Shown one piece after another: positions 52,102 through 54,484 of a stretch of DNA of 64,000 bases (positions are counted from its first letter, which is position 1; every line of letters starts with the position of its first letter). Made by a program: the position numbers and the translations under genes. Origin of the DNA: Paenibacillus odorifer (GTDB lineage Bacteria > Bacillota > Bacilli > Paenibacillales > Paenibacillaceae); contig NZ_CP009428.1 in assembly GCF_000758725.1 (NCBI RefSeq), positions 496,001 through 560,000 of the forward strand, read 5' to 3'. A model generated the notes under the pieces. It saw only the letters and a list, made by a program, of their open reading frames with translations. It was not told the DNA's origin and did not search any database.

Positions 52102-52131
52102 TTGACAATTGTGGGTGTCGGGCGCTAAACT
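52102..52131 (+). promoter_or_regulatory. Promoter of the riboswitch transcript
   Basis: Perfect TTGACA (52102-52107), 18 bases, then TAAACT (52126-52131). Confidence 0.55.
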
Positions 52132-52225
52132 GTTATTAATTCAAAAAGTATTAAAAGTCATAGACGGTTATTGGAGAGAATGCTTCGGCTACCAGTTCTG
52201 GACTTGCAGTGTAATACATATATAT

Positions 52226-52325
52226 AGTCATGATAATAGCAAACCGTCTGAAAGGGCGGGACGCAAAGTCCAGGAGTCTAAAGTGTCTTAAAGGCACAAT
52301 GACCGTCCGACTGCCATGAGAAGGG
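52226..52325 (+). promoter_or_regulatory. Cyclic-di-GMP-I (GEMM-I) riboswitch
   Basis: The aptamer shows the GEMM-I hallmarks in order: a TCATGATAATAGCAAACC entry, a short helix closed by a GAAA-type loop (CCGTC ... GGGCGG), GGGACGCAAAG (52258-52268), AGTCTAAAG, a variable stem GTGTC/GGCAC, then ATGACCGTCCGACTGCCATG. It lies about 100 bp upstream of the surface-protein gene and overlaps the 5' arm of a terminator, so c-di-GMP should switch transcription. The direction (on or off) was not determined. Confidence 0.92.
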
Positions 52326-52356
52326 AATTCCACTTCTTTTTGGCGGTCTTTTTTGT
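52300..52356 (+). terminator. Expression-platform terminator of the c-di-GMP riboswitch
   Basis: GACCGTC (52301-52307) can pair with GGCGGTC (52342-52348), enclosing AGAAG/CTTCT, then a run of six T. The 5' arm lies within the aptamer's 3' part, giving mutually exclusive folds. Confidence 0.7.
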
Positions 52357-52426
52357 TGTTAGGTCCTTTAGAGTTTCTGGTAATTATTCTGATTAATATA
52401 AATCATAGTTTTAGGAGGTGTGCCAT

Positions 52427-54484
52427 TTGAAAAGAAGAATAAGACCGTTACTCTCGCTTGTATTAGCTGGGATTTTGACGGTAGGTAGTGGGCTTTCCTC
52501 ATTAGGAGCTGGAGTTGCTGGAGCTAGTAGTTCTTCTACATTGGGAATTGCAGGGGTCTACAACGTGTTTATTCTAGGGGATATAACAACGGTTTCGGAT
52601 ACGGAAGGAAGGTTTGCTGCTGGAGGTAACGTTAACTTAACCAACTATAGTGTTGGAGATAGGTTGACCGCTGCTGAGGTTTCCTTGACTGACACACTTG
52701 TTGTTGGAGGGAATCTTACTTTCAACGGAGGTACTGTTTATGGGAATATCGTGCACGGGGGAGATTTTTCAGGGAATGTAACGCTCCTCAAGGGAGGTAC
52801 AAAAAGACAGGGGAGTACGATTGACTTTTCAGCCGTAGGTCAGTCTTTGAAGGACAAATCAGCAGAACTTGCAGCATTGCCGGCGAATGGAACAACAGTG
52901 TACCAATATGGCAGTCTTACCCTGACAGGTACAGATCCTGCGGTCAATGTTTTTAATGTTCCAGGAGATAACGTCTCTAATACCTATGGAATTACAATAA
53001 ATGTTCCTTCAGGATCTACAGCAATTATTAATATTGATGGTTCTAACGTAAAAATGAAAAACTTCGGATTTCTACCTAATAACGTGTTGAACAGCAAGAA
53101 AATTTTGCTTAACTTTAGCCAAGCTGCGTATCTGGATATGGCAGGCATAGGTGTAATGGGAAGCATACTTGCCCCCTATGCTCATGTTGATTTTATTAAT
53201 GGTCAGATTAACGGTACTTTAGTGGCGGCTTCACTCAAAGGGACTGGTGGTGGTGAATTTCACCACTATCCATACGATGGTGATGAACCTGGACCAACGC
53301 CGACACCAACGCCAACAGTGACACCAACGCCAACGCCAACAGTGACACCAACGCCAACGCCAACAGTGACACCAACGCCAACGCCGACAGTGACACCAAC
53401 GCCAACGCCGACAGTGACACCAACGCCAACGCCAACAGTGACACCAACGCCAACGCCGACAGTGACGCCAACACCAACACCATGTCCGACACCAACGCCG
53501 ACAGTGACGCCAACACCGACGCCAACGCCTACGTCAACACCAACAGTGACGCCGACACCGACGCCAACACCAACACCGACACCGACGCCGACAGTGACAC
53601 CGACGCCGACACCAACACCGACGCCAATACCAACGCCGACGCCAACAGTGACACCGACGCCGACAGTGACACCAACACCGACGCCGACAGTGACACCAAC
53701 GCCGACGCCAACACCAACACCAACGCCGACGCCAACAGTGACGCCGACGCCGACACCGACACCGACACCGACACCAACACCGACGCCAATACCAACGCCG
53801 ACGCCAACAGTGACACCGACGCCGACAGTGACACCAACACCGACGCCGACAGTGACACCAACGCCGACGCCAACACCAACACCAACGCCGACGCCAACAG
53901 TGACGCCGACGCCGACACCGACACCGACACCAACACCGACGCCAACAGTGACACCGACGCCGACAGTGACACCAACGCCGACGCCAACACCGACGCCAAC
54001 GCCGACAGTGACGCCAACGCCGACACCAACGCCAACACCAGAAGCAACACCGACACCGACGGTAACGCCAGAGGTAACACCAACTCCAGAGGTAACACCA
54101 ACGTCGACACCAGAGACTTCGGTGTTCCCGACACCAACGCCATCATCCGTAATTGGCACTATAGTTCTTGCAGAAGATCCTGTGCCGCTTGGGCCTGTAG
54201 CTTCGCCGACACCAGCGCCAGTACCAACACCGTCGAATAGCACAGAAGTACTTGTTGATGATGATGAGATCCCATTAGGTCCGGTACCGGCAGTGACACC
54301 AACGCCAACACCAACACCTGATGAAATCATCGTAGTGGACGATACGATCCCATTAGGTAAGCCGCCTGTGAAGGAATTGCCAAAAACGGGTGAATCAAGT
54401 CCTGCACCTTACTATGTAGCAGGTTTAGGTTTTGCACTTATCGGATTATTAATGAGAACCAAGTTCTCCAAAAAGAATAAATAA
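52427..54484 (+). CDS. Choice-of-anchor-A surface protein with Pro-Thr stalk and LPKTG anchor
   Basis: A 685-aa exported protein. A signal peptide ([15 protein letters not shown]..) is followed by a choice-of-anchor-A domain (about residues 35-275: [31 protein letters not shown]). A Pro-Thr/Val stalk (about 290-565) follows. Then come three short repeats ending in (D/E)xxPLG, a sortase signal LPKTG at about residue 651, a hydrophobic helix and a basic tail. TTG 52427 has AGGAGGTG at good spacing; GTG 52418 sits on it. It is probably a wall-linked adhesin or matrix protein under c-di-GMP riboswitch control. No sortase gene is in the window. Confidence 0.88.
53290..54110 (+). repeat. Coding tandem repeat of Thr-Pro units
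   Basis: ACNCCN hexamers encode (Thr-Pro)n interrupted by Val (TVTPTP). A higher-order copy of 162 bp (54 residues) is visible: the block starting GCCAATACCAACG at 53623 recurs at 53785. Such a stalk can change length by slippage or recombination. The long minus-strand open frame of Gly-Val here is only the antisense image. Confidence 0.9.

What the first reader, a model, noticed from the sequence alone, without database searches (positions are those of the whole stretch)
52102..54484. c-di-GMP-I riboswitch driving an LPKTG surface protein
Seen: GEMM-I aptamer with overlapping terminator directly upstream of a choice-of-anchor-A protein with a Pro-Thr stalk and sortase signal. Known: c-di-GMP controls sessile or motile lifestyle, and riboswitch-controlled sortase substrates exist in Clostridioides difficile. 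Inference: this is a direct c-di-GMP route to a wall-anchored adhesin in a Paenibacillus-like host, with no protein regulator needed.
Basis: partly seen in the sequence, partly recalled or inferred. Interest (0 to 1): 0.68.

Follow-up and report, generated by a model that had tools for sequence, protein, structure and literature searches.

The report
Variant cyclic-dinucleotide switch before wall adhesin
A bacterial surface-adhesion gene is preceded by an RNA switch of the kind that senses the signal molecule cyclic di-GMP, but in the relatives examined the letter that normally helps select that signal is changed, so which signal it senses has to be measured.

Summary
Observation confirmed. 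Rfam c-di-GMP-I (RF01051) scores 67.3 bits at 52228-52318. A terminator (52309-52354) shares bases with the aptamer's closing helix and its ligand-pairing C. Downstream, 52427-54484 encodes a choice-of-anchor-A protein with a Pro/Thr stalk and LPKTG anchor. All 48 leaders gathered from 45 same-genus genomes carry RF01051 and the overlapping terminator, so the predicted logic is ligand = ON. That arrangement is known (Bacillus thuringiensis Bc2-cap/cbpA).

(1) The ligand-selectivity base, G20 in the Vibrio Vc2 aptamer, is A in the window, and C (37) or A (11) in the 48 leaders; never G. A pattern scan of 100 genus genomes finds 309 G20 sites, and outside these leaders six A20 and one C20 aptamers. 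The genome's other seven aptamers have G20. c-di-GMP is still the likeliest ligand, but the Rfam match does not settle it. (2) A 30-nt block at the predicted transcript start (52136-52165) is nearly as conserved as the promoter hexamers, keeps a fixed distance from the -10 box, was found only before this gene and shows no consistent RNA partner. A second, probably protein-mediated, layer is likely, contrary to "no protein regulator needed".

The parts
52102..52131 (+). promoter, TTGACA (52102-52107), 18-nt spacer, TAAACT (52126-52131)
   Evidence: scan; hexamer identity 0.95 and 0.90 over the 48-leader alignment
52136..52165 (+). conserved block at the predicted transcript start (genus consensus TTAGTTCAAAAGTAACAAATGTCATAGAC); function unknown, candidate protein-binding site in DNA or RNA
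   Evidence: mean pairwise identity 0.80 against 0.41 (promoter spacer) and 0.25 (linker); fixed spacing to -10; no consistent RNA partner
52228..52232 (+). P1 helix, 5' strand (UCAUG)
   Evidence: fold; paired in 224 of 230 cells over 46 distinct leaders
52228..52318 (+). c-di-GMP-I (GEMM-I) aptamer
   Evidence: RF01051 67.3 bits
52238..52238 (+). ligand-selectivity position (Vc2 G20; RF01051 model position 11): A here, C or A in all 48 leaders
   Evidence: cmscan alignment; count
52265..52265 (+). A47 equivalent (intercalates in the ligand, recalled), invariant
   Evidence: 48 of 48
52314..52314 (+). C92 equivalent (Watson-Crick partner of the ligand; register against Vc2 recalled), invariant; also inside the terminator 5' arm
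   Evidence: 48 of 48; pairing
52315..52319 (+). P1 helix, 3' strand, shared with the terminator
52309..52354 (+). intrinsic terminator (expression platform): lower stem 52309-52315 with 52342-52348, U-tract 52349-52354
   Evidence: z -5.0; lower stem paired in 321 of 322 cells over 46 distinct leaders
52413..52418 (+). Shine-Dalgarno AGGAGG
   Evidence: sequence by eye
52427..54484 (+). choice-of-anchor A (pAdhesive_15) surface protein, TTG start, 685 aa
53294..54061 (+). Pro/Thr(Val) stalk repeats
54377..54391 (+). LPKTG sorting motif, followed by a hydrophobic stretch and basic tail
   Evidence: TIGR01167 residues 650-683

Best explanation
A transcriptional ON riboswitch on an adhesin gene. 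Transcription starts near 52136. Without ligand, the 3' part of the aptamer (P1 strand, the end of P3 and the ligand-pairing C at 52314) folds into the terminator and RNA polymerase stops. With a cyclic dinucleotide bound, P1 closes, the terminator cannot form, and the LPKTG-anchored choice-of-anchor-A protein is made. The likeliest ligand is still c-di-GMP, read by a pocket in which position 20 presents an amino group (A or C) in place of the keto group of G, which probably changes affinity or selectivity. A second, independent input acts through the conserved block at the transcript start, most likely a DNA- or RNA-binding protein. Shown computationally: aptamer, terminator, their overlap, the conserved pair, the changed position 20, the conserved block. 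Inferred: ON direction, ligand, surface display, role of the block.
For: Aptamer hit and fold; terminator. P1 and terminator use the same bases; over 46 distinct leaders both are kept (P1 224 of 230 cells, lower terminator stem 321 of 322, against at most 61% and 71% when slid by 1-3 columns). A published ON/OFF pair of aptamers of this class shows a terminator sequestering the C that pairs with the ligand cGAMP (PMC9262584, passage; that this is the Geobacter pilM ON switch is recalled). RF01051 is present in 48 of 48 leaders (28). The genome has 17 GGDEF hits, 16 with the canonical GHxxGD residue and 14 with an intact GG[DE]EF, and two sortases. Block: mean identity 0.80, 21-25 nt from the -10 box in 45 of 45 leaders that have it while the distance to the aptamer runs 14-118 nt. 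The position-20 change does not by itself exclude c-di-GMP: the equivalent G11 of Cd1 is called 'a selectivity factor ... than a hard filter' (PMC9262584 section 17).
Against: No experiment. P1 and terminator changes are mostly one-sided (G-U exchanges), so covariation is weak: two-sided cells were 0 in P1, 1 in the lower and 4 in the upper stem. The upper terminator stem in the commonest register pairs in 198 of 230 cells, and the outermost P3 pair of the Rfam model is an A-C mismatch in 31 of 46 leaders. For the window's full leader the lowest-energy fold pairs upstream bases with the aptamer, though the 11-bp helix behind it is absent from five sister leaders. Nothing ties the block to a protein: it has no dyad symmetry beyond shuffles, and 3 of 48 leaders (L053, L128, L132) lack it.
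Confidence: 0.6

Rival explanations
1. Plain c-di-GMP ON riboswitch: the A or C at position 20 is neutral, and the block is only part of the promoter's initially transcribed region. (It shares its switch logic with the best explanation, so the odds overlap.)
For: Direct precedent: Bc2 RNA upstream of cap/cbpA in B. thuringiensis is a c-di-GMP ON switch on an LPXTG adhesin (PMC4933901 abstract and passages; PMC7423583 abstract and passages). G20 and C92 are described as less conserved than A47 (PMC9049102 passages). Cd1 kept c-di-GMP binding after mutation of the equivalent position (PMC9262584 section 17).
Against: Position 20 is non-G in 48 of 48 leaders, while the genus scan gives 309 G20 sites and seven non-G aptamers outside these leaders and their relics. 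Initially transcribed regions are not normally conserved over 30 nt (general knowledge). The block was found only at this gene.
Confidence: 0.3
2. The aptamer subfamily has changed ligand: A20/C20 with C92 kept reads 3',3'-cGAMP or another guanine-containing cyclic dinucleotide.
For: G20A forms of this aptamer bind cGAMP (PMC7288161, PMC6274999, PMC11352751, passages), and rare natural variants sense c-AMP-GMP (PMC7266159 passages). The window's junction bases AAUA (52235-52238) match A11 A12 U13 A14 listed for the Geobacter cGAMP aptamer. A and C share an amino donor next to a ring-nitrogen acceptor; G and U do not, and neither occurs among the 48.
Against: No Hypr-type GGDEF apparent: 16 of 17 domains have the canonical Asp and the 17th is degenerate (the residue rule is recalled). 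CD-NTase (DncV-type) genes were not searched. Most leaders have C20, for which I found no binding data in the passages read. One leader tree without support values needs only two C-to-A changes, so the independent evidence is small.
Confidence: 0.2
3. The aptamer no longer binds a ligand and the leader is a fixed attenuator, relieved by a factor acting at the block.
For: Selectivity base lost in all 48 leaders; block strongly conserved.
Against: A47 and C92 equivalents, GAAA tetraloop and P2/P3 pairing are kept, with two-sided changes in all six P2 pairs and invariant pocket columns, which a dead aptamer would not keep.
Confidence: 0.07
4. In the window lineage an upstream strand (52162-52210) forms an anti-aptamer that adds to OFF-state stability.
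For: Lowest-energy fold of 52138-52360 has this pairing, -68.8 kcal/mol, z -4.1, 0 of 200 shuffles as good; 11-bp helix GACGGTTATTG/CAATGACCGTC.
Against: The helix is absent from L046, L060, L061, L129 and L133, whose longest helices are others of 6-10 bp; block-to-leader complementarity equals shuffled blocks (mean 8.4 against 8.2 bp over 45 leaders; 2 of 45 stand out).
Confidence: 0.05

Closest known systems
Bc2 RNA - cap/cbpA, Bacillus thuringiensis (PMC4933901, PMC7423583; abstracts and passages)
   Same: c-di-GMP-I aptamer, intrinsic terminator next to the gene, ON direction (measured there), LPXTG wall-anchored adhesin with a proline-rich region
   Different: Adhesive part is an MSCRAMM/Cna-type collagen binder there, choice-of-anchor A here. 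I did not compare position 20 of Bc2.
Geobacter cGAMP (GEMM-Ib) riboswitches, e.g. pilM, Gs1761
   Same: Same fold; A at the G20 position (in the window lineage); terminator takes up the ligand-pairing C; ON switch (recalled for pilM)
   Different: Most leaders here have C20; the first junction pair is G-C as in Vc2, not C-G (for Geobacter C15); no Hypr GGDEF apparent in this genome; ligand unmeasured
Clostridioides difficile c-di-GMP-controlled sortase substrates (e.g. CD2831; PMC6447587 and PMC6200980 seen only in the listing)
   Same: c-di-GMP riboswitch control of sortase-anchored surface proteins
   Different: Those ON switches are mostly class II (recalled); here class I
Rfam c-di-GMP-I-GGC (RF03167)
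   Same: Variant family of the same clan; one hit in a related genome, downstream of the domain (L050)
   Different: The window was reported under RF01051 only; the bases that set RF03167 apart were not examined

Membership tests
c-di-GMP-I / GEMM-I RNA family (RF01051) | covariance-model score above gathering | tested here: met
   67.3 against 35 bits
c-di-GMP-I / GEMM-I RNA family (RF01051) | GAAA tetraloop on P2, three-helix junction, A47, C92 | tested here: met
   invariant columns; counts
c-di-GMP-I / GEMM-I RNA family (RF01051) | G at position 20 (c-di-GMP selectivity; not required for RF01051 membership) | tested here: not met
   A in the window; 37 C and 11 A in 48 leaders
c-di-GMP-I / GEMM-I RNA family (RF01051) | binds c-di-GMP and changes transcription | not testable with these tools
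   needs in-line probing / transcription assay
3',3'-cGAMP riboswitch (GEMM-Ib) | A at position 20 | tested here: met
   window A; but C in 37 of 48 leaders
3',3'-cGAMP riboswitch (GEMM-Ib) | cGAMP-making enzyme in the genome (Hypr GGDEF or CD-NTase) | tested here: inconclusive
   no Hypr residue seen in 17 GGDEF hits; CD-NTase not searched
LPXTG sortase substrate | LPXTG, hydrophobic stretch, basic tail at the C-terminus | tested here: met
   TIGR01167 above cut-off; 19 of the 20 complete frames (own included) end likewise, L039 does not
LPXTG sortase substrate | N-terminal signal peptide | not tested
   basic/hydrophobic start by eye only
choice-of-anchor A (TIGR04215 / PF20597) | domain score above curated cut-off | tested here: met
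   216.5 against 29 bits; 199.7 against 23.8 bits

The most novel reading that the evidence does not exclude
A GEMM-I subfamily, kept in one genus upstream of one adhesin, has replaced G20 by C or A and so reads a different or additional cyclic dinucleotide from the canonical aptamers in the same cells, letting the adhesin be switched separately from the rest of the c-di-GMP regulon; a dedicated factor at the conserved transcript-start block gives a second input.
Probability: 0.2. Interest if true: 0.8.

Novelty: new variant of a known kind. Interest (0 to 1): 0.47.

Why it matters
One genome holds seven G20 aptamers and one A20 aptamer of the same class, the latter on an adhesin, and most relatives hold C20 there. 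That is a natural experiment on how a riboswitch pocket tunes or switches its ligand, and on how one target is separated from a regulon that shares a second messenger. If C20 RNAs bind c-di-GMP, the recognition rule for this much-studied pocket needs revising; if not, there is an unassigned ligand controlling surface adhesion. The transcript-start block gives a concrete site to search for a second regulator.

Tried and rejected
Block pairs with the aptamer (GUCAUAG with CUAUGAY): the aptamer side varies in several leaders (e.g. L055, L117, L131) without matching change in the block (by eye), no consistent partner appears (last nine bases of the block, 45 leaders), and block-to-leader complementarity equals shuffled blocks. 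Block as a palindromic operator: best dyad matched or beaten in 1662 of 2000 shuffles. Block as a regulon-wide site: of 38 exact matches to TAAACT-N22-26-TCATAGAC in 100 genomes, 29 are in this leader and 9 elsewhere lack the rest of the block (read by eye); a 3-mismatch search of 60 relatives gave counts like its reversed control (own genome 4 against 9), and the 11 exact matches in its capped list all lie at this gene. Own-lineage anti-aptamer helix: absent from five sisters. Named relatives: the genome-contig scan gave only Thiocapsa; plasmids gave four distant choice-of-anchor matches and no leader match. No solved structure of the adhesive domain by sequence. Paper searches for choice-of-anchor A with riboswitch and for c-di-GMP-I with 'position 20' and 'specificity' returned none.

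Limits of counts: the 48 leaders come from 45 genomes of one genus (three second copies). L140 was dropped as a duplicate of L054. A fragment in G024 and a decayed paralogue in G060 (L185) were left out. Upstream regions of the lower-scoring copies (~1500-aa paralogues, and ones in G026, G072 and G123) were not examined, except that in the own genome no RF01051 hit lies near its long copy. In one search I shifted a one-column gap by hand in rows with a gap at column 54. The first aptamer comparison (35 of 36 G20) is biased, because ranks by model score; searches are not, but they miss aptamers without GGACGCAAAG (L048, L049 among the leaders), and the 309 G20 matches were not each checked to be aptamers. 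A phylum-wide G20 count was not run, so 4 of 398 genomes with C20 pattern hits has no denominator. The tree was midpoint-rooted, without support values.

Full report
Rfam's c-di-GMP-I model matches 52228-52318 with 67.3 bits, and the excised RNA folds as the model expects, closing helix P1 included. A promoter lies upstream, and a stable terminator (52309-52354) lies immediately downstream and shares bases with the aptamer. The gene, which by eye starts at TTG 52427, encodes a choice-of-anchor A domain, a long Pro/Thr repeat stalk and an LPKTG sorting signal.

The pair is conserved. I searched 120 relatives for the adhesive domain (51 of 120 genomes hit) and looked at the 30 best-scoring loci: all 28 from the same genus (own included) have RF01051 upstream; the two from other genera do not. 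A second search of the 100 genomes held for the genus (61 of 100 hit at E 1e-30) brought further loci; 20 more leaders were added, and RF01051 is found in all 20 (49 to 69 bits). That makes 48 leaders from 45 genomes, 46 of them distinct over the aptamer-terminator region. These are the high-scoring, mostly shorter copies; the ~1500-aa paralogues and a few other lower-scoring copies were not examined beyond the own genome. Of 20 complete reading frames (own included), 19 end in an LPXTG signal.

Switch logic. The terminator's 5' arm contains the 3' strand of P1, the end of P3 and C52314, the equivalent of the C that pairs with the ligand. Over 46 distinct sequences P1 is paired in 224 of 230 cells and the lower terminator stem in 321 of 322; slid controls reach at most 61% and 71%. 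The changes are mostly one-sided, so this is conservation more than covariation, and the upper stem is less regular (198 of 230 cells). The two folds exclude each other, so a bound ligand should prevent termination: an ON switch. A terminator that sequesters the ligand-pairing C is described for a cGAMP-sensing aptamer of this class (PMC9262584, passage), and B. thuringiensis Bc2 RNA on the LPXTG adhesin cap/cbpA is a measured c-di-GMP ON switch (PMC4933901; PMC7423583; abstracts and passages). The general arrangement is therefore known.

What is not ordinary is the pocket. Position 20 of the Vc2 aptamer (RF01051 model position 11, the base before GCAAA; the correspondence to Vc2 numbering is recalled) is G in the family consensus. 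In the window it is A (alignment). In the 48 leaders it is C 37 times and A 11 times, never G or U, while the bases equivalent to A47 and C92 never vary. The genome's seven other aptamers have G, as do 35 of the 36 other aptamers fetched, although that set was ranked by model score. A pattern scan of 100 genus genomes, not ranked by score, gives 309 G20 matches, 39 C20 matches and 18 A20 matches. Of the C20 matches, 35 are these leaders, two are a decayed copy and a fragment of the same leader, one is another aptamer and one is not an aptamer. Of the A20 matches, 11 are these leaders, six are other aptamers and one is not an aptamer. In 398 genomes across the phylum the C20 pattern occurs in four, three of them aptamer-like. 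A leader tree needs two changes, both C to A, so the number of independent events is small.

Meaning of position 20. G20A forms of this aptamer bind cGAMP (PMC7288161, PMC6274999, PMC11352751, passages), and natural variants of the class sense c-AMP-GMP (PMC7266159, passages). The position is also described as a selectivity factor and not a hard filter (PMC9262584 section 17), and as less conserved than A47 (PMC9049102, passages). I found no binding data for C20 in the passages read. This genome has 17 GGDEF hits; 16 carry the canonical GHxxGD residue, 14 an intact GG[DE]EF, and one is degenerate. c-di-GMP is therefore very likely made, and no Hypr-type cGAMP synthase is apparent (the Hypr residue rule is recalled). 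CD-NTases were not searched. I keep c-di-GMP as the likeliest ligand, at about 0.6 to 0.7, and treat changed selectivity as open. The explanations listed share the switch logic, so their odds overlap and do not add to one.

The second unexpected feature is a 30-nt block at 52136-52165. Given the mean -10 to start-site distance of 4.1 bp reported for Paenibacillus riograndensis (PMC5670726, passages), if the host is of that kind, it starts at the predicted transcription start. Its mean pairwise identity is 0.80, against 0.95 and 0.90 for the -35 and -10 hexamers, 0.41 for the promoter spacer and 0.25 for the linker that follows; among 24 leaders thinned for similarity the block, spacer and linker figures are 0.76, 0.35 and 0.22. 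It is recognisable in 45 of 48 leaders (not L053, L128, L132), 24 nt after the -10 box in 40 and 21-25 nt in all 45, whereas its distance to the aptamer ranges from 14 to 118 nt. It is thus tied to the promoter and not to the aptamer. Of 38 exact matches to its core behind a TAAACT box in 100 genomes, 29 are at this gene. It has no consistent pairing partner, no excess complementarity to the leader and no significant dyad. The simplest reading is a binding site for a protein, at DNA or RNA level, dedicated to this gene; an untested alternative is an effect of the RNA 5' end on stability.

Verdict: a real riboswitch-adhesin pair of a known kind, in a variant form with a changed ligand-selectivity base in all leaders examined and an additional conserved control element.

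Noticed in passing
L149 954-1984 (G000:C1:727753-728783): A sortase gene lies just upstream of a tandem pair of c-di-GMP-I aptamers (both G20), which precede a secreted transglutaminase-like protein (PF01841). The capped list shows two aptamers about 155 nt apart in many genus genomes.
   Followed up: partly
L143 169-1890 (near G000:C1:6551787): Second sortase, SrtD-like (NF058671), directly follows a gene for a Pro/Thr-stalk protein with a C-terminal LPNTA.
   Followed up: no
L160, L162, L166: C20 or A20 aptamers outside the adhesin leader occur beside a G20 aptamer in tandem (by eye).
   Followed up: no
L025: An A20 c-di-GMP-I aptamer lies upstream of a GGDEF-like protein in a genome of the same order (by eye).
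   Followed up: no
L185 (G060:C1:5279500-5281300): A neighbouring paralogue with a Pro/Thr-type stalk and apparently degraded adhesive domain keeps a C20 aptamer and terminator, but its transcript-start block is eroded (by eye).
   Followed up: partly
window 55759-55846 +: BsrC small RNA (RF01410, 62.2 bits) downstream of the alpha/beta hydrolase gene.
   Followed up: no
window 45193-45427 -: Cobalamin riboswitch (82.5 bits) upstream of what read like ribonucleotide reductase genes on the minus strand (by eye).
   Followed up: no
window 29622-35912 -: 2096-aa protein whose translation reads like a nuclease and a 5'-nucleotidase joined, with a Pro/Thr stalk and C-terminal repeats that look like SLH domains (by eye).
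   Followed up: no
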